34,723 nt of DNA from a virus: IMG/VR virus record IMGVR_UViG_3300021963_000378, positions 1 through 34,723 of that record; one strand, given 5' to 3'. Position 1 is the first letter of the stretch. Every line of letters begins with the position of its first letter. The translations under genes were made by a program, and so were the position numbers. Positions 2,810 through 20,322 of this stretch are shown piece by piece. The notes under the pieces were generated by a model. That model made no database searches and was not told the DNA's origin. It saw nothing but the letters and a program-made list of their open reading frames with translations.

Positions 2810-4894
2810 GTGGCTTTAAATAAGCTTAACCATATATACGGAGAACCTCTTGTTGTTAGCTCGCTAAACACCACGGGTGATGCCGTAATAGATGGTGCTC
2901 TCACCGTACTTGGTACTTCCAACTTTGTTGGCGCAGTAACTTTTGGAAATGTAAGTGACGCAGAACTTCAGTTTCTAGATGGCTTAACTGACAATATACA
3001 GACCCAGTTAGACGGCAAAGTTACATCTGCTCAAGTTGCTGCTTCTTATGCTGCTTTATCAGGTGCTGCATTTACTGGAGCTATCTCTGCTACTGACTTA
3101 ACTCTTACAAACGACTTAACTATTGCCAATGGTGGTACAGGACTTAGCGCCACTACCAAGGGCGGAATCTTTGTAGGTAATTCTACAACTGCCTTTACTA
3201 ACGTCACCGTTGGAACAGATGGTTACCTACTTACTGCAGATAGCGCTCAAGCAACTGGCCTTAAGTGGGCAGCAGCCCCTGTAAGTCTTCCAACACAAAC
3301 GTCTAACTCAGGTAAGTTTTTAACTACTGATGGAACATCTGCGTCTTGGGCAACTTTAAACGCTCTTCCAACTCAGACAGGTAACTCAGGTAAGTTCCTA
3401 ACCACAGATGCAACGACCGCTTCTTGGGCAACTCTTACCGCATCTAACCTAACTGGTGGAACTCTATCTTCAACTATCCTAGGTAACTCCACTGTCTACA
3501 TCGGTAGCACAGCAGTTGCGTTAAACCGCGCAACAGGAAACCTTGTTCTTACTGGTATTACAAGCGTGGCATTACCAGGTTCCACATCTGGAACTATCAC
3601 ACTACAGCCAGCTGCAACCGCAGGGACAAACACAATTACTCTTCCTGCAGCTACAGGAACTGTTGACCTACAGGGTAATACCTTCTATGTGGGAACTACA
3701 GCAATAGCTAATAACCGTGCATCTGCTTCTCAGACACTAACGGGAGTTAGTATTGATGGAAACGCAGCAACAGCAACTACCGCAAGTGGAGTATCTGCAG
3801 CTAACCTTTCTGGAACAACCCTTAACTCAGGCGTTGTTACTTCTTCTTTAACTACTGTTGGAACTATTGCGACAGGTACTTGGTCCGCATCATTTGGCGC
3901 TGTGTCAGGTGCAAACTTAACCTCACTTACAGCAGGTAACCTTTCTGGAACAATCCCTACTGGAGTGCTTGGTAACTCAACCCACTACATTGGAACTACA
4001 GCGGTTACATTAAACCGTGCTTCTGCAAACTTAGCTCTAACAGGAATTTCTAGCGTAGCATTTCCTGGTTCTACTTCTGGAACCATCACAGTACAACCTG
4101 CGGCAGTTGCAGGAACTAACACTTTTACGCTTCCTGCAGCAACTGGAACGGCAGCTCTTCAAGCAGATGTCCATTACATTGGAACCACATCTATTGCGTT
4201 AAACCGTGCCTCTGCCTCCCAGACTTTAACTGGAGTAAGCATTGATGGTAACGCTGCTACTGCTACAACAGCAGCGGCTACTACTAACGGCCTTACTACA
4301 TCCAACTACAGCTCTTATGCCGTACCACTATCTGGTGGAATTATGAGCGGTATTTTAACTATTGGAAATGTTGGAGACCAGATTCACCTTCACCCAGTAG
4401 CTAATGGAACTTCAGGAAAAACAACTCTTCTCAGAAATGATGGTTCTGACTTCTACATACTTCTTGCTGATGCGAATACTGCTCCAGCATCTGCAAGTTG
4501 GAATGCCTTGCGTCCGTTCTTTATTAATACTACAACAGGAGTGTTAAACTCAGTTAATAGCCAGAACTTTAGCGGAACAACTACAGTACAAGGAACACTT
4601 GTCATTAACTCTGACTCTCGTCTAAAGGAAAACCTAGTACCTATTACAGGTGCTGTGGATAAACTAAAAGCTATTACAGGCTATAACTACAACCGTATTG
4701 GTTCTGAAAAACTTGAAATGGGAGTTGTTGCTCAAGAAGTGCAGGTTATTGCGCCAGAATTAATTATAGAGAATGAAGAAGGAACGCTTGCTGTAGCCTA
4801 CGCAAATATGGTTGCGCTTCTTATTGAAGCGGTTAAAGAACAATCAGCAGAGATTGCTGCTCTCAAGGAGCAAGTAAAAGAACTTAGGGGCTAA
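2810..4894 (+). CDS. Tail fibre with C-terminal S74 intramolecular chaperone
   Basis: This 694-residue fibre starts at GTG 2810, 7 bases after a strong AAGGAGG. The body is low-complexity and rich in Thr, Ser, Ala, Gly and Asn, and contains internal repeats: a 26-residue unit repeated twice, and a longer unit repeated at 163-residue spacing. The last ~94 residues form a peptidase S74 chaperone: the motif SDSRLKEN begins at Ser601, with Lys606 five residues later, the Ser/Lys spacing known from endosialidase-type chaperones. A GVVAQEV segment and a final coiled-coil helix follow. Known members trimerise the fibre and then cut themselves off just before the Ser, so mature fibre would end near residue 600. 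It is followed by three small tip-like genes. Family assignment of the C-terminus is firm; which tail structure carries the fibre is not shown. Confidence 0.9.
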   Translation: MALNKLNHIYGEPLVVSSLNTTGDAVIDGALTVLGTSNFVGAVTFGNVSDAELQFLDGLTDNIQTQLDGKVTSAQVAASYAALSGAAFTGAISATDLTLTNDLTIANGGTGLSATTKGGIFVGNSTTAFTNVTVGTDGYLLTADSAQATGLKWAAAPVSLPTQTSNSGKFLTTDGTSASWATLNALPTQTGNSGKFLTTDATTASWATLTASNLTGGTLSSTILGNSTVYIGSTAVALNRATGNLVLTGITSVALPGSTSGTITLQPAATAGTNTITLPAATGTVDLQGNTFYVGTTAIANNRASASQTLTGVSIDGNAATATTASGVSAANLSGTTLNSGVVTSSLTTVGTIATGTWSASFGAVSGANLTSLTAGNLSGTIPTGVLGNSTHYIGTTAVTLNRASANLALTGISSVAFPGSTSGTITVQPAAVAGTNTFTLPAATGTAALQADVHYIGTTSIALNRASASQTLTGVSIDGNAATATTAAATTNGLTTSNYSSYAVPLSGGIMSGILTIGNVGDQIHLHPVANGTSGKTTLLRNDGSDFYILLADANTAPASASWNALRPFFINTTTGVLNSVNSQNFSGTTTVQGTLVINSDSRLKENLVPITGAVDKLKAITGYNYNRIGSEKLEMGVVAQEVQVIAPELIIENEEGTLAVAYANMVALLIEAVKEQSAEIAALKEQVKELRG
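3287..3442 (+). repeat. Two tandem 78-bp coding repeats in fibre gene
   Basis: Two adjacent 78-bp units (3287-3364 and 3365-3442) encode 26-residue repeats that begin LPTQT, continue NSGKFLTTD and end SWATL plus two residues. The protein copies differ at only a few positions, while synonymous bases differ more, so this is an older duplication kept by selection on the protein. Confidence 0.85.
3479..4279 (+). repeat. Duplicated ~104-residue fibre unit, 489-bp period
   Basis: Copy A is about 3479-3790 and copy B about 3968-4279, offset by exactly 489 bp (163 codons). Both encode a unit starting LGNST-x-YIG, passing through GSTSGTIT and LPAATGT, and ending GVSIDGNAATATT. This gives the shaft a repeated beta architecture. 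Copies are clearly homologous but diverged at the DNA level. Confidence 0.85.
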
Positions 4895-11883: not shown

Positions 11884-11936
11884 TGACAGAATGTAAGTGT
11901 GGCAACTGTGGCTGCGGCAAAAAAGACCCAAGCTAA
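11883..11936 (+). CDS. 17-residue Cys-rich peptide (CxCGNCGC)
   Basis: ATG 11883 overlaps the upstream TGA, and GAGGAAA lies about ten bases ahead. The peptide is MTECKCGNCGCGKKDPS: four cysteines in a CxC-x2-CxC pattern followed by Lys-Lys. The same kind of head starts the genes at 12730 and 12945. There the head is fused to a Lys-rich tail, whereas here the frame closes just after an A6 run (11919-11924) and a Lys-rich frame continues in +1. It may be a real micropeptide, the front of a frameshifted fusion, or a relic. Confidence 0.5.
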   Translation: MTECKCGNCGCGKKDPS

Positions 11937-12153
11937 GGTTGAAAAGCCAGTAACTCTGGCTATCAAGGTCCCAGGCAAGCCTGCACGGGAAACTCACAAA
12001 ATTTCTAAGAACAAAAAAGGTGAGGTCATTGTTGACCATACCAACCGTGATAAAGGCAAGTACGACAAGATTAACCTGACAAAAAAAGCTGGGTCTAAGA
12101 CAATTGCTCAAGGAGTAAAAGCGACTAAAGATTGGCATAAAACAAATGGCTAA
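11899..12153 (+). CDS. Lys-rich 84-residue protein, start uncertain
   Basis: The frame encodes a basic protein with a strand pattern VTLAIKVPGKPARETHKISKN, then GEVIVDHTNR and a Lys/Thr/Gly-rich end. The only starts are GTG 11899 or 11908, neither with a good ribosome site, and both lie inside the Cys-peptide gene in another frame. From about 11926 onward it looks coding. A +1 shift at the A6 run would instead join the CxCGNCGC head to this body. The family is unknown; its basic nature suggests nucleic-acid contact (inference). Confidence 0.6.
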   Translation: MATVAAAKKTQAKVEKPVTLAIKVPGKPARETHKISKNKKGEVIVDHTNRDKGKYDKINLTKKAGSKTIAQGVKATKDWHKTNG

Positions 12154-12280
12154 AGGACCTTGTTGGGATGGATACGAGCAAAAAGGTATGAAGATGAAGA
12201 ACGGCAAGTCCGTTCCTAATTGTGTACCTGTGGGTTCAGTTAAGAAAAAAACTGTAAAGAAGAAAGCGAAGGCAAAGTAA
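12146..12280 (+). CDS. 44-residue basic protein, KGPCWDGYE type
   Basis: ATG 12146 overlaps the preceding stop; TAA shares its last base with the next ATG (TAATG). The protein starts AKGPCWDGYEQKGMK and has PNCVPVG followed by a Lys-rich tail. The CWDGYE ... VPNCVP layout is a small-protein type I recall from environmental phage genomes, with two cysteines about 20 residues apart. Function is unknown. Confidence 0.7.
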   Translation: MAKGPCWDGYEQKGMKMKNGKSVPNCVPVGSVKKKTVKKKAKAK

Positions 12281-12483
12281 TGGCTACAGCAAAGAAAGCT
12301 GCTGCAAAACCAAAGTCTAAGGTTAATGAGGCTGGAAACTACACTAAACCTGGTATGCGCAAAGCAAAGTTTAATAAGATTAAAGCTGGCTCTAAGGGTG
12401 GAGACCCAGGAGAATGGTCTGCCCGTAAAGCTCAACTTCTTGCTGCTGAGTATAAGAAGGCAGGCGGAGGGTACAAGGACTAA
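12280..12483 (+). CDS. 67-residue basic protein with GWSARKAQ-type motif
   Basis: Start ATG 12280 shares a base with the upstream TAA. Residues after a Lys/Ala-rich head read VNEAGNYTKPGMRK, then KIKAGSKGGDPGEWSARKAQLLAAEYKKAGGGY. The segment G-G-x-PG-x-WSARKAQ-x-x-A-x-x-YKK-x-GGGY is a recognisable short module found in phage and large-virus proteins of unknown role (I believe a DUF5872-like family, from memory). High Lys content suggests binding to packaged DNA, but this is not shown. Confidence 0.75.
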   Translation: MATAKKAAAKPKSKVNEAGNYTKPGMRKAKFNKIKAGSKGGDPGEWSARKAQLLAAEYKKAGGGYKD

Positions 12484-12484
12484 A

Positions 12485-12721
12485 ATGGCTAAAGCTAAGT
12501 CACAGCAGTCATTAAGTAAGTGGGGCGCTGAAAAGTGGCGCACTTCTGATGGCAAAGAATCTAAAGGTAAAAAGCGTTACCTGCCAGAAAAGGCGTGGAA
12601 TTCTTTATCTTCTTCAGAGAAAGCTGCAACTAATAAAGCAAAAGCAAAAGGCAATAAAGAAGGAAAGCAGTTCGTAGCTCAACCAAAGAAGATAGCTAAA
12701 AAAACCTCTAACTACAGATAG
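12485..12721 (+). CDS. 78-residue basic protein with KWGAEKWRT motif
   Basis: The correct start is most likely ATG 12485, right after the upstream TAA; the frame is open further upstream but overlaps the previous gene completely there. The protein reads SLSKWGAEKWRTSDGK, then GKKRYLPEKAW, SSSEKAATNKAKAKG and QPKKIAKKTSNYR. This is a known compact layout of hypothetical basic viral proteins (I recall it as DUF6321-like). The Lys-rich nature and neighbours suggest a nucleic-acid-binding virion role (inference). Confidence 0.75.
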   Translation: MAKAKSQQSLSKWGAEKWRTSDGKESKGKKRYLPEKAWNSLSSSEKAATNKAKAKGNKEGKQFVAQPKKIAKKTSNYR

Positions 12722-12729
12722 GAAATAAG

Positions 12730-12945
12730 ATGTGTGCAGCATGTGGATGTGGAAAGAAAAAGGGCGAGCCAGGTTTTGGCAAAGGCCCAAAGTCCAAGTC
12801 AAAAAAGGCCTGTACTTGCGGTACCTGTAAGGCATGTAAATCAAAGAAGTCACCTTTAAAAGGTAAGCAAAGTAAGCTTGATGCAGACAAAGACGGCAAG
12901 CTAGAAGGCTCTGACTTTGCTGCCCTACGAAAGAAGAAGAAGTAG
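12730..12945 (+). CDS. Cys-rich protein with EF-hand/dockerin-like loop
   Basis: ATG 12730 follows AGGAAAT. The 71 residues comprise a head MCAACGCGKKK, a second cysteine group CTCGTCKAC, and a C-terminal calcium-loop-like element LDADKDGKLEGSDF, with Asp at loop positions 1, 3 and 5, Gly at 6 and Asp at 12, as in dockerin-type EF loops. It ends in Lys5-like RKKKK. It could bind a soft metal at the cysteines and calcium at the loop. The stop TAG overlaps the next GTG. The role is unknown. Confidence 0.75.
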   Translation: MCAACGCGKKKGEPGFGKGPKSKSKKACTCGTCKACKSKKSPLKGKQSKLDADKDGKLEGSDFAALRKKKK

Positions 12946-14231: not shown

Positions 14232-15788
14232 ATGGCTTATAGCCGTCCAGGTGTTTACATTAGTGAGCGCCTACTACCCGCACCAATTGGAGCTGGAGCT
14301 GCAGCTAATGCTGCAGGTGCAGTTGCTGCACCGCTTGCTCAAGGTCCAGAAACCGTAACTCTTGTTAATTCTTGGTATGAATTTACCAAGTATTTTGGAG
14401 GATACAACGCCGCATATCCATCAACTTTTGGAATTGCTCAATTCTTTGCTAATGGTGGTCGTGATTTATACGTAAAGCGTATCCTTTCATCAAACGCATC
14501 AAATGCTTCTGTAACAGTGTCTACCGCTGGTTCAGTAGCTGTGTTTACTGTTACTGCTAAAAGCCGTGGAGCAGATGGCACTAACCTTCGTGTAGAAATT
14601 ACGGCTGGTACCGTTGCAAGCACTTACACTCTAACACTTACTAAGGAAACCGTTGCAGGAACATCGTCAAATACTGCAAACGATTTCTTGCTTGAGCGTT
14701 ATGAAAACGTTATTTTTGACCCAACGTTTGCAACAAGTTCCGATTATGCAAACACAGTAATTAACACTATTTCTGCGTACATTACTATTAGCGGTAACGC
14801 TGCTGGTGTTCCCGCTCCAGCTGTTTACCCGCTTACAGTCAGTGGTTCACCAGTAAATGGTGGAGATGGCTCAACTGTAGTTGCAGCTGATTACACATCT
14901 TATGCTTCAACATCAACTGCTGTTTGGAATGAGTTCAACTTCATCAATCGTCCTCTAGTAATCTTTACACCAAACATCTATGCTGTAGTACCTACATCTA
15001 CTGCAACAGTTACAGCAGCAGCAGCTGCATGGGCTGAAGCTAACAACGGATTCTATGTTGCAGAAACAGCTTCTGGACTAACTGTGGATGCTGCAATTGC
15101 TGTAGCTCAAGCACTTAGTGGTAAGAGCTCAACTGCTATGTATTACCCACACGGGTACATTGCAGACCCAGTAGGCCGTGGAAATGGCGCACTGCGTCTA
15201 ACAGGTCCTTCAGGAGCCGTTGCAGGAAAGTACCTTGCAACAGATGCAAGCATCGGAGTGTTTAAAGCACCTGCTGGTCTACGAAGCCCAGTTGCTGGAA
15301 TCGTTGCTTTAGAGCGCGTGTTTACAACAGCTGAACTAGACAGAATGAACGTTGGTCTTCCTGCTGCAGGAACAGGTTCAGTTGCACCTCTAAACCCTCT
15401 TCGCCAGATTCCTGGTGCGGGAATTGTAGTTATGGGTGCTCGCACTCTTCTACAAGATGGAACTGCAAACCGCTATGTAAATATGCGTCGTTCCTTGATT
15501 TACATCAAGGCACGTCTAAAAGCTATTACTGAGTTTGCAATTTTTGAAAACAACGATGAGCGCCTATGGATGCAAATCAATAACGTTATTGATTCATTCC
15601 TGAACGAGTATCGTAATCAAGGAGGTCTACGTGGAGGACCTGCACAAGCATACTTCATCAAGTGCGACGCAGAAAATAATCCTGCAAACTTAATCGCTCA
15701 AGGTGAAGTCCACATTGAAGTTGGCGTCGCACTGCAGTACCCTGCAGAGTTTATCGTCATTGACCTCAGCCAAAAAACGCTGAACTAA
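14232..15788 (+). CDS. Contractile tail sheath protein
   Basis: This 518-residue protein opens with SRPGVYISER, the N-terminal strand that links neighbouring sheath subunits, and has FFANGGRDLYVKRI, a typical sheath segment. The C-terminal core includes GARTL, RYVNMRRSLIYIKA, LW-x-QINNVIDSFLNEYRNQGGLRGG and VHIEVGVALQYPAEFIVIDL, all diagnostic of the phage sheath fold. It polymerises around the tube and contracts at infection. AGGAGAAAACA precedes ATG 14232. The middle (residues ~90-300) is an Ala/Thr/Ser-rich variable domain exposed on the sheath surface. Confidence 0.95.
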   Translation: MAYSRPGVYISERLLPAPIGAGAAANAAGAVAAPLAQGPETVTLVNSWYEFTKYFGGYNAAYPSTFGIAQFFANGGRDLYVKRILSSNASNASVTVSTAGSVAVFTVTAKSRGADGTNLRVEITAGTVASTYTLTLTKETVAGTSSNTANDFLLERYENVIFDPTFATSSDYANTVINTISAYITISGNAAGVPAPAVYPLTVSGSPVNGGDGSTVVAADYTSYASTSTAVWNEFNFINRPLVIFTPNIYAVVPTSTATVTAAAAAWAEANNGFYVAETASGLTVDAAIAVAQALSGKSSTAMYYPHGYIADPVGRGNGALRLTGPSGAVAGKYLATDASIGVFKAPAGLRSPVAGIVALERVFTTAELDRMNVGLPAAGTGSVAPLNPLRQIPGAGIVVMGARTLLQDGTANRYVNMRRSLIYIKARLKAITEFAIFENNDERLWMQINNVIDSFLNEYRNQGGLRGGPAQAYFIKCDAENNPANLIAQGEVHIEVGVALQYPAEFIVIDLSQKTLN

Positions 15789-15806: not shown

Positions 15807-16466
15807 ATGGCTACCATAACTAATAATCGCTCAAGCCTAATTACAGACCCGTTACGTAACTTTAGGTTTTTGGTTACGTTTACTGCACAAACTGGCGCAA
15901 GCCCAGCAACTACCGCACTAGCAGCAAGTACAGCGGTAATGGGCTTTACTTCAGTATCAGGAATGGCTGTAACAACAGATTCTATTCCTTACCGTGAAGG
16001 TGGTTACAACACTACCGTTCACCAAATTCCAGGACAAACAACGTTTGCTCCTATTACGCTACAGCGTGGAATGATGCTTGGACAACGCAAGAACTTTGAC
16101 TGGATGCGAGATATGTTTGCAACAGTTCAGGGTGGAGCTGGTTCACGTGGAGTTGGACAAAACTTCCGTTGCGACCTAGATATCCAAGTTCTATCTCATC
16201 CAATTCCAGGAGTTGGTGGAGAAGGAACTGGAGACACAACACCCCCAACGGACCACGTAGCTATGCGCTTTAAAGTGTATAACTGCTGGCCTACATCCCT
16301 TGCTTACTCAGACCTTAATGCAGGAGACAATGCTTTATTCGTAGAGCAAATGACCCTTGTACATGAAGGTTTTGATGTTAACTTTGGAACAACACTAGCC
16401 ACCGATGGTGGAGCTTCAGCTATCTTTGGCGCAATTCCAGATGCAACTCAAGCAAAAGCAGTCTAA
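15807..16466 (+). CDS. Tail tube protein, T4 gp19-like
   Basis: This 219-residue protein matches the gp19-type tube: DPLRNFRFLV near the start, FTSVSGM, IPYREGGYNTTVHQIPGQTTFAPITLQRG and DWMRDMF. These strands form the hexameric ring of the inner tube. The order sheath then tube is the standard one. AAGGAGATAATAACTT precedes ATG 15807. It is longer than T4 gp19 (163 residues) because of loops such as GGAGSRGVGQ and PGVGGEGTGDTTPP. Confidence 0.95.
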   Translation: MATITNNRSSLITDPLRNFRFLVTFTAQTGASPATTALAASTAVMGFTSVSGMAVTTDSIPYREGGYNTTVHQIPGQTTFAPITLQRGMMLGQRKNFDWMRDMFATVQGGAGSRGVGQNFRCDLDIQVLSHPIPGVGGEGTGDTTPPTDHVAMRFKVYNCWPTSLAYSDLNAGDNALFVEQMTLVHEGFDVNFGTTLATDGGASAIFGAIPDATQAKAV

Positions 16467-16483: not shown

Positions 16484-17299
16484 ATGACAACGAAAACAAT
16501 CAGTGCAGCGGCTAATCCCGCAATGGCTAACAATCTCCTAAACCAAGTCATTAATGAACAGATTGAAGATGATTTCAATCCCGAAATTAAATCTCCTGCA
16601 GATAATACGGTTGAGCTTCCTGGCGGGTTTTTAACACCCGCTGGGGAGGTCCTCCGTACTGCAGAGGTACGAGAGCTAAATGGTCGCGATGAAGAAGCAA
16701 TTGCTAAAGCATCTAACGTAGGTAAAGCTCTTGGGACAATAATTCAACGTGGAACAGTTTCTATTGGAGACCTTAAAGCGGAAGAATCTGTTTTAGATAG
16801 ATTACTAGCGGGAGACTTAGATGCTCTTCTCCTAGGCATTATTAAATCAACTTTTGGAACAACTGTTGACATCCCCTCTTACTGCGCAAAGTGCGAAGAC
16901 TATAAGATTGTAACGGTTGATTTAAACGAAGATATTAAAGTAAAAGTTTTAGCAGACCCAATTAATGACCGTGTTTTTACTGTACAAGGAAAGAAAGACC
17001 TATTCACAGTTTCTCTTCCAACTGGTATTACTCAAAAAGCGCTTATTAAAAATGCTGATAAAACAGAGGCAGAGCAAACAACAATTCTTCTTGAAGATTG
17101 CATTTTAAAGATAAACGAAAACCCTGTCTATAGCCCTGTACAAGTACAAAACCTTGGAATGGTAGATAGAAAGAGTATTGTAAAAGAAATTAACAAACGA
17201 GTTCCTGGACCTCAGTTTACTGACATCACAGTTACGTGCCCTGAGTGTGAAGGCGAGGTAACGGTCTCCATTAATTTGGGAACCTTGTTTCGCTTGTAG
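16484..17299 (+). CDS. Tail assembly chaperone / T4 gp26-like zinc protein, frame-0 product
   Basis: The 271-residue frame-0 product lies between tube and tape measure, the usual place of tail assembly chaperones. It has a disordered head, PGGFLTPAGEV, LNGRDEE, an acidic helix segment and four cysteines in two distant pairs (Cys134-x2-Cys137 and Cys252-x2-Cys255) that could share a zinc ion, as in the T4 baseplate gp26/gp51-like family. It stops at TAG 17297, right after the run ACC-TTG-TTT-CGC-TTG. A second frame continues in +1 beyond the stop to 17459, so a minor longer product is likely. AAAGGAATAAA precedes ATG 16484. Confidence 0.8.
   Translation: MTTKTISAAANPAMANNLLNQVINEQIEDDFNPEIKSPADNTVELPGGFLTPAGEVLRTAEVRELNGRDEEAIAKASNVGKALGTIIQRGTVSIGDLKAEESVLDRLLAGDLDALLLGIIKSTFGTTVDIPSYCAKCEDYKIVTVDLNEDIKVKVLADPINDRVFTVQGKKDLFTVSLPTGITQKALIKNADKTEAEQTTILLEDCILKINENPVYSPVQVQNLGMVDRKSIVKEINKRVPGPQFTDITVTCPECEGEVTVSINLGTLFRL
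17285..17299 (+). promoter_or_regulatory. Candidate +1 frameshift site (TTG-TTT-CGC-TTG-TAG)
   Basis: In frame 0 the bases read TTG TTT CGC TTG TAG. A Phe tRNA in the P site at TTT (17288-17290) can re-pair with TTC (17289-17291) after a one-base forward move, before the Arg CGC codon and just ahead of a stop. The UUU-CGN core matches the influenza PA-X type shift site. The shift joins frame 0 to the open frame ending at 17459. A -2 shift would give the same frame but has no equally good slippery sequence here. Confidence 0.65.
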
Positions 17300-17459
17300 T
17301 TATACGTCGTACTTAGAGTTATTCTCACAATGGGCAGTTCTAAGCGACATACATACGGGATGGACACTATCTGACATAAAAGATATGTCAGTAAGAGAGA
17401 GACAAAATTGGCTAGAACTAGCCAAGGCAAAGGCAGAGAGGACAAGCAGTGGCATTTAA
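17292..17459 (+). CDS. +1 frameshift extension of tail assembly chaperone
   Basis: This frame has no usable start of its own (only ATG 17385, 24 codons from the end) but is open from 17262 to TAA 17457. Its translation reads like a real domain: SYTSYLELFSQWAVLSDIH, then TLSDIKDM, SVRERQNWLELAKAK and AERTSSGI. If the ribosome slips from TTT (17288) to TTC (17289), the chaperone would be extended by 55 residues to about 324. The end overlaps the tape-measure start by a few bases. The M-S-x-RER-x-W-L helix is the kind of C-terminal segment seen in this chaperone family. Confidence 0.75.
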   Translation, partial: ACSYTSYLELFSQWAVLSDIHTGWTLSDIKDMSVRERQNWLELAKAKAERTSSGI

Positions 17460-20322
17460 CTTTATGGGTAATGTTAAAACTCTTACCTCTTCTGTCACCT
17501 CCCTTAAAAAAGAACTCTCTGGTGTCTATGACGTCTTAAAAAAGATTAAAGGACTTGGGCCATCAGCATTTGGGGACGTCAATGCTGTGCTCCAAAAAAG
17601 CGGTCAGTTTGGTAACGGTGTTGGTACACCTGTATTTGCAAAATCAAGCGTAACAAATGCCCCTAAGTTTTCAAATAGCACAACTATGGGTGCGGCTAAA
17701 CCAAGCTCAAATGCGCAGTTAAGCAATTACGAAAAAACAGCTTCAGCAATACAGACTCAGTATTTAGATATGGGTATACGCGAAGCTAAATTTAGTATAG
17801 CTGCAGGTGTTGCACAAACAGTTACTGGGGTTGTTAGTGCGGGTATGGGTATGCTCCCTAACGTTGGGGATGTGGCTCAAAGAGCTGGTTCTTTTTACGG
17901 CTCTTCAGCGATGTTTGGTGGTACTAACCGTACTCAAAACCAGCTAAACACAATGGCGGCTATGCGGGGCGGAATTACAGGCCCTACAGGTACTGCTGAA
18001 GCTTTTGGAACTCTTACTAGTTTTAGTTATATGCCTGGTAGTTCAAATATGGCACGGGGTCTTGGCGACGTGGGAGCAGCTGCTAAAGCATTGAACATGG
18101 ACAACGCCAGCGCCGCACAAGCGGTAGGAGCAACATCTACAGGAAGTTTTGGAGCTCAGCTCTACCAGTATGGTATTCGTCAATACGACGACAAAGGAAA
18201 CCTCCGTAAATCTGGAGATATTTCTAAAGACATTTTGCAGCGTATTTTTTATCCAGGCAAAGATGTAAGCAAAATTGGTGCAGAACAATTTGCTAAAGAC
18301 TCAATGGGTATGAACCTTGATTACCAGCTTGGAACTATGGGAATTCAAGGCGCACAGTTAACTAAGATGAAAGCTGAAATGGGTCTAGCAGTAACAGGTA
18401 AAAATCCTAATCTTGATACAGTAAACACTTCTGGTAATCCTTTAAACCCTTTTCTTCAAATTCAAGGTTCTGAAGAAAAACTTACTCAAAAAACTGAAAA
18501 AGACATTTTAGCAGGAGCACAAAAAGCTGCTGATGCATTAGTTATTTTAAATAATGCGTTAGAAAAAACTCCTAGTTTAATTGTACAAATGAACAGCGCT
18601 TTACAAACTTTTAATGGTACAAAGTCTGGTAACGGCGTTATGAACATAGTTAAAAGTGTTGCTCAAGGTGGAGCACAGCTTTATGCTGGCTCTAAACTTA
18701 TAAAGTACCTTAAAGGACTTAAAGGAGGAGCAGCAGCTGAAACAACAGCTCTTGAAACTGCAGCAACAACAGCAGCAAATACTGGAAAAATTGTTATAGA
18801 CCCTGTAACAGGAGCTGCAAGCCACAGCGCAACTGCAGTGACGGAAACAGCAGCAACGGCTGCTAAAGCTTCAAAACTTGCAATGGCAAGTCGTGTAGCT
18901 GGAAAAGTTGCTATACCCCTAACTGTTGCTACATCCTCGTATGATGTTTATAAACTTAGTCACGACGAAGAAATGAAAGCTTATGCAGCAAAGTGGGATA
19001 AAGACCACAAAAAAGCTTCATTTTGGGACAGGTTTAAAGAATCTATTAATATGATTGGTGACTACTATGGTGGACAAAAGTACGGAACAACTAACTCTCA
19101 AAATAGAGGTGGCCCAACCTCTGGTTTCTTCTCCAATGTTGGAGGAAACACTCCTAGCGTAAACTCATTTTCATTTAGCTCTGGCTCTCAACCAATGGCT
19201 AGTGGACCTTTAGCTTCTTCAATGAGTGCTACATCTATCTCTAAAACTATGGGTGCTGGGTTTGGTGCAAAAGACCCGTCAATGACAATGGCTGGAGCAT
19301 TGAACTATCACACAGGTGAAGACACTCCTATGCCAACAGGTACTCCTGTCTATGCGCGTTTTGCTGGAAAAGTTGTAGAAAGAAATTTAAGTAGAGACTT
19401 AGGTATTGCAGTAGAAGTTGACCATGGAGATGGTTACTCCTCTATCTATGGTCACTTAAACTTAAAAGTAGTTCGTTCTGGTCAAGAAATTAAAATTGGC
19501 GACTTGATTGGAAAATCTGGTTCAACAGGCCGTGTTACAGGTCCTCACCTTCACTTTGAACTACGTAAAGGCAAAGTTCCTACTGACCCAAAAACTTACA
19601 ACCCAGACAATAAGGGCGACGGTAAAAAAGGAACAGGGTCTAGTGCAGCTGGAGCATCAGTCAACGCAGCAAATGTGTCTAAGGGGATTAAAGCAAGTGG
19701 TAAACAATTACACGCTTGGTTAATGTCTCAAGGGTTTAGTAGTAATGGGGCTACAGGTATTCTTGGTAATTTAATCCAAGAGTCTGGTCTTAGCACTGGT
19801 TCAATTGGAGATGGCGGAACCTCATTTGGCATTGCTCAATGGCATAAAGGCCGTGGAGATAACCTAAAGAAGTTTGCTGTATCTATGGGTAAAGATTATA
19901 CGGACCTTGAAGTTCAAAAAGCATTTTTGTTAAAAGAAATGAAAACTTATCCAGATATGGTTAAGAAACTTCAAGACCCAAATATAGGAATTGTTGATGC
20001 TGCAGCACTATTTATGAGAAAGTTTGAACGACCAAAAGACCAAAGTGATAAAGCTGCAGGAAAACGAGCAAGCCTCGGTATTGGAGCAGTACAAGGTGGT
20101 CCAAACGATGGCTTTAACATCAATGTCAATGATGCAACTTCTGGCACTGGTATGCTATCTACACGTAATACAAATGCAACATCTTCAAACAGCGGAACAA
20201 ACAACATCTACGTTACTTTACAAATTCAACAAGCTAACCAACAAGAAGCAGAAGCTTTTGCAAAAACTTTGAAGAAGTATCTTGAAAAAGACAACCAACT
20301 TTATAAGTTAGGAAGTAACTAA
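17449..20322 (+). CDS. Tape measure protein with M23 peptidase and tail lysozyme domains
   Basis: This 957-residue protein sets tail length and is carried in the tube. GTG 17449 follows GAGAGGACAAGCA. The N-terminal ~600 residues are helical and Ala/Gly/Ser-rich, with a hydrophobic patch near residues 480-500. A LytM-type M23 peptidase occupies about 610-720, with the zinc and catalytic set His621, Asp625 (HTGED), His669 (YGHL), His700 and His702 (GPHLHFEL). A phage tail lysozyme-like domain follows at about 755-880, with the likely catalytic Glu778 in NLIQESGL and SFGIAQWHKGR. The end (IYVTLQIQQANQQEAEAFAKTLKKYLEKD) is the usual closing helix. Both hydrolases would open peptidoglycan during DNA entry. 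Confidence 0.95.
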   Translation: MAFNFMGNVKTLTSSVTSLKKELSGVYDVLKKIKGLGPSAFGDVNAVLQKSGQFGNGVGTPVFAKSSVTNAPKFSNSTTMGAAKPSSNAQLSNYEKTASAIQTQYLDMGIREAKFSIAAGVAQTVTGVVSAGMGMLPNVGDVAQRAGSFYGSSAMFGGTNRTQNQLNTMAAMRGGITGPTGTAEAFGTLTSFSYMPGSSNMARGLGDVGAAAKALNMDNASAAQAVGATSTGSFGAQLYQYGIRQYDDKGNLRKSGDISKDILQRIFYPGKDVSKIGAEQFAKDSMGMNLDYQLGTMGIQGAQLTKMKAEMGLAVTGKNPNLDTVNTSGNPLNPFLQIQGSEEKLTQKTEKDILAGAQKAADALVILNNALEKTPSLIVQMNSALQTFNGTKSGNGVMNIVKSVAQGGAQLYAGSKLIKYLKGLKGGAAAETTALETAATTAANTGKIVIDPVTGAASHSATAVTETAATAAKASKLAMASRVAGKVAIPLTVATSSYDVYKLSHDEEMKAYAAKWDKDHKKASFWDRFKESINMIGDYYGGQKYGTTNSQNRGGPTSGFFSNVGGNTPSVNSFSFSSGSQPMASGPLASSMSATSISKTMGAGFGAKDPSMTMAGALNYHTGEDTPMPTGTPVYARFAGKVVERNLSRDLGIAVEVDHGDGYSSIYGHLNLKVVRSGQEIKIGDLIGKSGSTGRVTGPHLHFELRKGKVPTDPKTYNPDNKGDGKKGTGSSAAGASVNAANVSKGIKASGKQLHAWLMSQGFSSNGATGILGNLIQESGLSTGSIGDGGTSFGIAQWHKGRGDNLKKFAVSMGKDYTDLEVQKAFLLKEMKTYPDMVKKLQDPNIGIVDAAALFMRKFERPKDQSDKAAGKRASLGIGAVQGGPNDGFNINVNDATSGTGMLSTRNTNATSSNSGTNNIYVTLQIQQANQQEAEAFAKTLKKYLEKDNQLYKLGSN

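What the first reader, a model, noticed from the sequence alone, without database searches (positions are those of the whole stretch)
17262..17459. Hidden +1 frame after tail chaperone with UUU-CGC shift site
Seen: frame +1 relative to the chaperone is open from 17262 to TAA 17457, has no usable start, and translates into a domain-like sequence (SYTSYLELFSQWAVL ... MSVRERQNWLELAKA). At 17288 the P-site codon TTT can re-pair as TTC before CGC, just before TAG. Known: tail assembly chaperones between tube and tape measure are classic programmed-frameshift genes, mostly -1; UUU-CGN is the PA-X-type +1 site. Inference: this phage makes a minor 324-residue G-T-like fusion by +1 shifting. The -1 frame stops at 17314, excluding the usual mechanism.
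Basis: partly seen in the sequence, partly recalled or inferred. Interest (0 to 1): 0.8.

Follow-up and report, generated by a model that had tools for sequence, protein, structure and literature searches.

The report
Conserved +1 frameshift in tail chaperone
A group of uncultured phages, related to Streptomyces phages, appears to make a rare long form of its tail-building helper protein by having ribosomes skip one base at an invariant UUUC site, an unusual direction for a trick that most tailed phages perform by slipping backwards.

Summary
The chaperone ORF 16484-17299 (Pfam PF12322, T4 gp26-like) ends in TTT CGC TTG TAG; the +1 frame (17262-17456) is open, has no usable start and encodes a conserved domain. 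In 114 of 115 distinct relatives the last Phe codon is TTT followed by C, the +1 frame is open, and it encodes the same helical domain. In 69 non-redundant loci UUUC is the only run of invariant bases. In GC-rich relatives TTT is used at this site in 10/10 cases but only 6/62 elsewhere in the same genes. A search started from the extension gave 75/75 complete loci with the site. Extension codons are under purifying selection (pooled pN/pS 0.22). The extension aligns with P2 E', the tail protein part made only by -1 frameshifting. Distant relatives reach the same domain by -1 shifts or in-frame fusion. The A-site codon is not only CGN (81/114): CAR and CTN also occur, so the invariant signal is UUU_C. 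No Shine-Dalgarno or RNA-structure stimulator was found. Precedent: a TTT-CGC +1 shift was proposed for HF1-group haloviruses (PMC7230728), in an apparently unrelated chaperone. Direct peptide evidence is lacking.

The parts
15807..16466 (+). tail tube protein gene, directly upstream
   Evidence: PHROG 4542 tail tube, E 1.5e-28
16484..17299 (+). 0-frame chaperone ORF (G-like), 271 aa, T4 gp26/PF12322 family with two CxxC zinc-ribbon-like motifs
   Evidence: PF12322 40 bits, cut-off 24.5; phrog_150 baseplate hub E 1.4e-9
17285..17299 (+). shift region TTG TTT CGC TTG TAG
   Evidence: sequence; same layout, slip codon 2-3 codons before the stop, in 114 distinct relatives
17288..17291 (+). slippery tetranucleotide UUU_C: P-site tRNA-Phe re-pairs UUU to UUC
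   Evidence: only run of invariant bases in 69 non-redundant loci; TTT 114/114 versus 411/622 at other Phe codons
17289..17459 (+). +1-frame extension (T/E'-like domain), 55 residues after the shared Phe, with TAA stop
   Evidence: homologous in all 114 loci; pooled pN/pS 0.22; P2 E' match E 4.9e-5
16484..17459 (+). predicted 324-residue frameshift fusion (GT-like)
   Evidence: translation with TTTC read as one Phe step
17449..20322 (+). tape measure protein with M23 peptidase and tail lysozyme domains; its GTG start overlaps the end of the extension
   Evidence: PF01551 E 2.1e-28, PF18013 E 1.4e-25

Best explanation
This is a programmed +1 ribosomal frameshift gene of the G/GT kind. Most ribosomes are expected to read the chaperone to TAG 17297-17299 and make the 271-aa protein (G). 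With UUU 17288-17290 in the P site and CGC waiting in the A site, some tRNA-Phe (anticodon GAA) slip forward one base to UUC, which they pair with better. They then read GCU UGU AGU ... to TAA 17457, giving a 324-aa fusion (GT). By analogy with lambda and P2, G would coat the tape measure protein while the extension of GT recruits tail tube subunits, so that the tail is built to the right length. Shown by comparison: the frame, the site, the conservation and coding selection of the extension, its similarity to P2 E', and the gene order. Inferred: that the shift happens, its level, and the role in assembly.
For: TTT plus C at the site in 114/114 +1-type loci against 411/622 TTT at other Phe codons in the same genes and 98/112 at the conserved TFG Phe (Fisher 5e-19 and 3e-5, not corrected for relatedness). 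In 10 loci with GC above 58% the slip is TTT 10/10, other Phe 6/62 (p 1.5e-8). The wobble base of the slip codon carries 2.0 bits in 69 non-redundant loci, other wobble positions upstream 0.01-1.1. The +1 frame opens as little as 5 nt before the slip, confining the shift to that site. Extension pooled pN/pS 0.22, and window versus L021 substitutions 2/1/11 by codon position. Independent search from the extension: 75/75 complete loci carry TTTC in the right frame after a long ORF. No start codon at all before the core in 35/114, no start with a Shine-Dalgarno match in 104/114. Extension versus P2 E': hhalign E 4.9e-5, 31% identity over 39 columns; PF06528 in 9 of 25 members, best E 0.001. In-frame fusion in L107: PF12322 E 8e-18 plus DUF6760 E 7.2e-6 in one ORF. 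The window's chaperone model resembles the HK97 tail assembly chaperone 2ob9 (prob 0.66-0.69, TM by target 0.48-0.55).
Against: No peptide, reporter or ribosome profiling data. No classic stimulator: anti-Shine-Dalgarno energy -2.98 versus -2.11 in controls, fewer sites below -4 than controls (16% versus 19%), and no structure specific to the downstream region. CGC is not obviously rare here (21 of 138 Arg codons in the window genes). Profile scores of the extension to Pfam families are below their cut-offs. Fold matches have E-values of 0.7-2.9.
Confidence: 0.9

Rival explanations
1. The extension is a separate small gene translated from its own start (or by re-initiation after the chaperone stop), as annotated for Streptomyces phages BRock, LuckySocke and GiJojo.
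For: Separate CDS are annotated there; some loci hold TTG/GTG/ATG codons in the frame (79 of 114).
Against: No start codon before the core in 35/114, including the window; no start with a Shine-Dalgarno match in 104/114. The BRock start at locus position 3773 lies inside the conserved domain. This model does not explain the invariant UUUC, the conserved +1 phase, or the in-frame fusions in relatives.
Confidence: 0.04
2. The two frames result from a sequencing or assembly error, or from a decayed gene.
For: A single contig could carry an indel; no tool result points to this.
Against: The same arrangement occurs in 114 distinct loci from separate assemblies, including isolates and bacterial genomes; the extension is under purifying selection.
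Confidence: 0.005
3. The frame change happens by another route: slippage on the preceding Leu codon, tandem slippage, or transcriptional slippage.
For: The preceding codon is usually UUG/UUA/CUG (105/114).
Against: The preceding codon varies (ACC, GCG, GTG, ATC, TTC also occur) while UUUC never does; a run of three U is too short for RNA polymerase slippage as usually described (own knowledge).
Confidence: 0.04
4. The frameshift is real but the product is not a GT-like tail length chaperone; for example it acts in baseplate hub assembly, as T4 gp26 is annotated.
For: PF12322 and phrog_150 are named baseplate/baseplate hub.
Against: Gene order tube-chaperone-tape measure, P2 E'-like extension, HK97 chaperone-like fold.
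Confidence: 0.12

Closest known systems
HF1-group and HSTV-2 haloviruses, tail assembly chaperone (PMC7230728; PMC5009743)
   Same: TTT-CGC close to the end of the first of two CDS between tail tube and tape measure; +1 shift proposed; sites read here: HSTV-2 TCC TTT CGC AGA, HF1 AAG TTT CGC AGA TAG.
   Different: Archaeal viruses; the 177-aa chaperone shows no detectable similarity to this one (hhalign prob 0.2%); the second CDS shows no E'-like motif on reading. That evidence was six genomes and no experiment.
Phage P2 E/E+E' (NC_001895)
   Same: Frameshift extension between tube and tape measure genes; E' aligns with this extension.
   Different: -1 shift; E is a different, shorter chaperone.
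Phage lambda G/GT and HK97 gp13
   Same: Position and logic of a minor extended chaperone; weak fold similarity to HK97 gp13.
   Different: -1 shift; no detectable sequence similarity to solved chains.
Influenza PA-X UCC_UUU_CGU (PMC3498833)
   Same: P-site slippage on UUU_C without an evident structural stimulator.
   Different: Eukaryotic ribosome, unrelated gene; there CGU is thought to matter, here the A-site codon varies.
Listeria PSA tsh and SPP1 gp17.1* (+1 shifts in tail tube genes; PMC5009743, PMC6316719)
   Same: +1 shift in a phage tail gene of bacteria.
   Different: CCC at or near a stop codon; structural tail protein, not the chaperone.

Membership tests
G/GT-type tail assembly chaperone genes | lies between tail tube and tape measure genes | tested here: met
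G/GT-type tail assembly chaperone genes | overlapping second frame without its own start, conserved across relatives | tested here: met
G/GT-type tail assembly chaperone genes | -1 slippery heptamer (usual, not universal: Mu -2, HSTV-2 likely +1) | tested here: not met
   -1 frame closed at 17314; +1 site instead; direction is not treated as defining because published exceptions exist
G/GT-type tail assembly chaperone genes | extension related to a known frameshift extension | tested here: inconclusive
   P2 E' hhalign E 4.9e-5; PF06528 15.9 bits, cut-off 23
G/GT-type tail assembly chaperone genes | chaperone fold | tested here: inconclusive
   HK97 gp13 2ob9 is the only sensible match, TM by target 0.48-0.55, E 0.7-2.9
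G/GT-type tail assembly chaperone genes | fusion made at a fixed ratio, binds tape measure and tube, absent from virion | not testable with these tools
   needs experiments
PF12322 T4_baseplate (T4 gp26 family) | score above the curated cut-off | tested here: met
   40 bits versus 24.5
PF06528 Phage_P2_GpE | score above the curated cut-off | tested here: not met
   15.9 versus 23 bits for the window extension; called E'-like, not a member
UUU_C (PA-X/HF1-type) +1 sites | UUU in the P site followed by C | tested here: met
   114/114
UUU_C (PA-X/HF1-type) +1 sites | A-site CGN codon | tested here: met
   met in the window (CGC); only 81 of 114 relatives
[quoted passage not shown]
   stop lies 2-3 codons after the slip codon; no anti-SD enrichment

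The most novel reading that the evidence does not exclude
UUU_C with no added stimulator is a self-sufficient, widespread +1 frameshift signal in phages of Actinobacteria and relatives, and the T4 gp26 family (PF12322) is the long-missing G-type chaperone of contractile tails and injection systems. It gains its T domain by +1 shifting, -1 shifting or permanent fusion in different lineages, while unrelated chaperones of haloarchaeal viruses converged on the same UUU_C site.
Probability: 0.5. Interest if true: 0.78.

Novelty: new variant of a known kind. Interest (0 to 1): 0.64.

Why it matters
Frameshifted tail chaperones are nearly all -1, and a published review says that the arrangement is widely conserved except in T4 (PMC5009743). 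Here a T4 gp26-type protein has it, in the +1 direction, in over a hundred distinct loci with one invariant tetranucleotide. That gives bacterial +1 frameshifting a large natural data set, links the T4 gp26 family to tail assembly chaperones, and shows that automatic annotation misses or mis-starts this gene: pSt2308 has no CDS there and BRock starts inside the domain.

Tried and rejected
Independent start, re-initiation and assembly error were tested and rejected. Stimulators: anti-Shine-Dalgarno pairing and downstream structure not found. The idea that in-frame UUU_C is specifically avoided elsewhere: it is depleted (10 seen, 46 expected in chaperone genes; 109 seen, 255 expected in other ORFs), but GAU_C is depleted too and UUC_C is also low in the chaperone, so not claimed. 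Homology to the HSTV-2 chaperone: none detected. Rfam and tRNA scans of the window were empty. The first extension DNA pattern was badly written and found nothing; corrected. A PF20546 search of the window found nothing. Two haloarchaeal source papers are not held.

Full report
Observation. The window is a virus record of 34,723 bases. The tail module runs sheath 14232-15788, tube 15807-16466, chaperone 16484-17299, tape measure 17449-20322. The chaperone ends TTG TTT CGC TTG TAG; the +1 frame is open from 17262 to 17456, holds no ATG/GTG/TTG before its conserved core, and ends with TAA 17457-17459, overlapping the tape measure start GTG 17449. The -1 frame stops at 17314.

Relatives. A search with the chaperone gave 80 viral loci, Streptomyces phage loci and nine loci in bacterial genomes; a profile search gave another 80 viral loci, partly overlapping the first set. 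After removing duplicates there are 115 distinct loci. In 114 the chaperone ends with a TTT codon followed by C, two or three codons before its stop, and the +1 frame continues into the same domain; the exception, L095 from a Lysobacter MAG, reaches the domain in the -1 frame after GCTTTTTTTTTG. To avoid choosing loci through the chaperone, a DNA pattern for the extension was scanned: of 76 distinct hits, 75 have TTTC in the correct frame after a long ORF, and the last is cut by a contig end.

Codon test. At the slip site TTT is used 114/114. Other Phe codons in the same genes are TTT 411/622, and the conserved TFG Phe is TTT 98/112. In ten loci with GC above 58% the slip is TTT 10/10 while the other Phe codons in these genes are TTT 6/62 (p 1.5e-8; relatedness not corrected). 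In 69 loci less than 85% alike, the four bases UUUC are the only run of fully invariant positions between -36 and +29. The A-site codon is CGC 54, CGA 19, CAG 16, CAA 13, CGT 5, CGG 3, CTC 3, CTG 1. The signal is therefore UUU_C, not UUU-CGN.

Extension. Its codons evolve as coding sequence in the +1 frame: pooled pN/pS 0.22, median dN/dS 0.13 over 261 pairs; window versus L021 differs at 2, 1 and 11 first, second and third positions. Invariant residues include W25, R36-E37-R38 and W41 of the extension. It aligns with P2 E', the part of P2 gpE+E' made only by -1 frameshifting, at 31% identity over 39 columns, E 4.9e-5; Pfam P2_GpE and DUF6760 hit many members below their cut-offs.

Other routes to the same fusion. 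In Streptomyces genomes the +1 type recurs (L098, L104, L105). L108 and L109 show an extension-like sequence in the -1 frame after AAT TTT TTA, by reading only. L107 has PF12322 (8e-18) and DUF6760 (7.2e-6) in a single ORF, and L110, L112 and L114 carry a similar in-frame C-terminus, with L112 next to a protein that looks like Pvc16 of contractile injection systems (by eye). The model of L107 is confident (pLDDT 92.7) and one helix, 227-253, crosses the junction. This supports the view that chaperone and extension act as one chain.

Chaperone identity. The window protein is in PF12322. Its own model (pLDDT 85.9) and that of L107 find the HK97 tail assembly chaperone as the only sensible solved match: prob 0.54-0.69, TM by target 0.48-0.55, rmsd 3.2-4.1, E 0.7-2.9. 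This is suggestive, not proof.

Mechanism. For UUU_C the argument made for PA-X applies: one tRNA-Phe reads UUU and UUC and prefers UUC, so a P-site slip of +1 is favourable while the A site is empty (PMC3498833). UUU followed by a pyrimidine was studied as a shift-prone site by Schwartz and Curran 1997 (title seen in a reference list; content from my own knowledge). No Shine-Dalgarno-like or structural stimulator was found, so what sets the efficiency is open; the level may simply be low, as for lambda GT.

Prior knowledge. A review states that G-T frameshifting is widely conserved except in T4 and that HSTV-2 is very likely +1 (PMC5009743). For HF1-group haloviruses a +1 shift at TTT-CGC was proposed (PMC7230728). 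Both sites were read here, and the HSTV-2 chaperone has no detectable similarity to this one. No report was found of a +1 shift in a PF12322 chaperone or a bacterial tail chaperone, within the papers held.

Verdict. It is a new variant of a known kind: a +1, UUU_C-driven G/GT chaperone in a T4 gp26-type family.

Noticed in passing
L107:1492-2352; L110:1342-2115; L112:1351-2100 (-); L114:1336-2127: Streptomyces homologues, at least one beside a Pvc16-like gene of a contractile injection system, carry the extension-like domain fused in frame to the PF12322 domain.
   Followed up: partly
L108 and L109 (near the chaperone stop); L095 around 3190-3224: Relatives in which the extension-like domain lies in the -1 frame after U-rich slippery stretches (AAT TTT TTA; GCTTTTTTTTTG), so the direction of shifting has switched in this family.
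   Followed up: partly
window 17449-20322: Tape measure protein carries both an M23 peptidase and a phage tail lysozyme domain.
   Followed up: no
window 11899-12945: Several short lysine- and alanine-rich basic ORFs in a row upstream of the tail sheath gene, one rich in CxC motifs (12730-12945).
   Followed up: no
L001:3773-3955: The annotated start of BRock gp135 lies inside the conserved extension domain; in pSt2308 (L004) the extension is not annotated at all.
   Followed up: yes
chaperone and neighbouring ORFs in 69 loci: In-frame UUU followed by C is about half as common as expected in other ORFs and rarer still in the chaperone gene (10 seen, 46 expected); GAU_C is depleted as well, so the cause is unclear.
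   Followed up: partly
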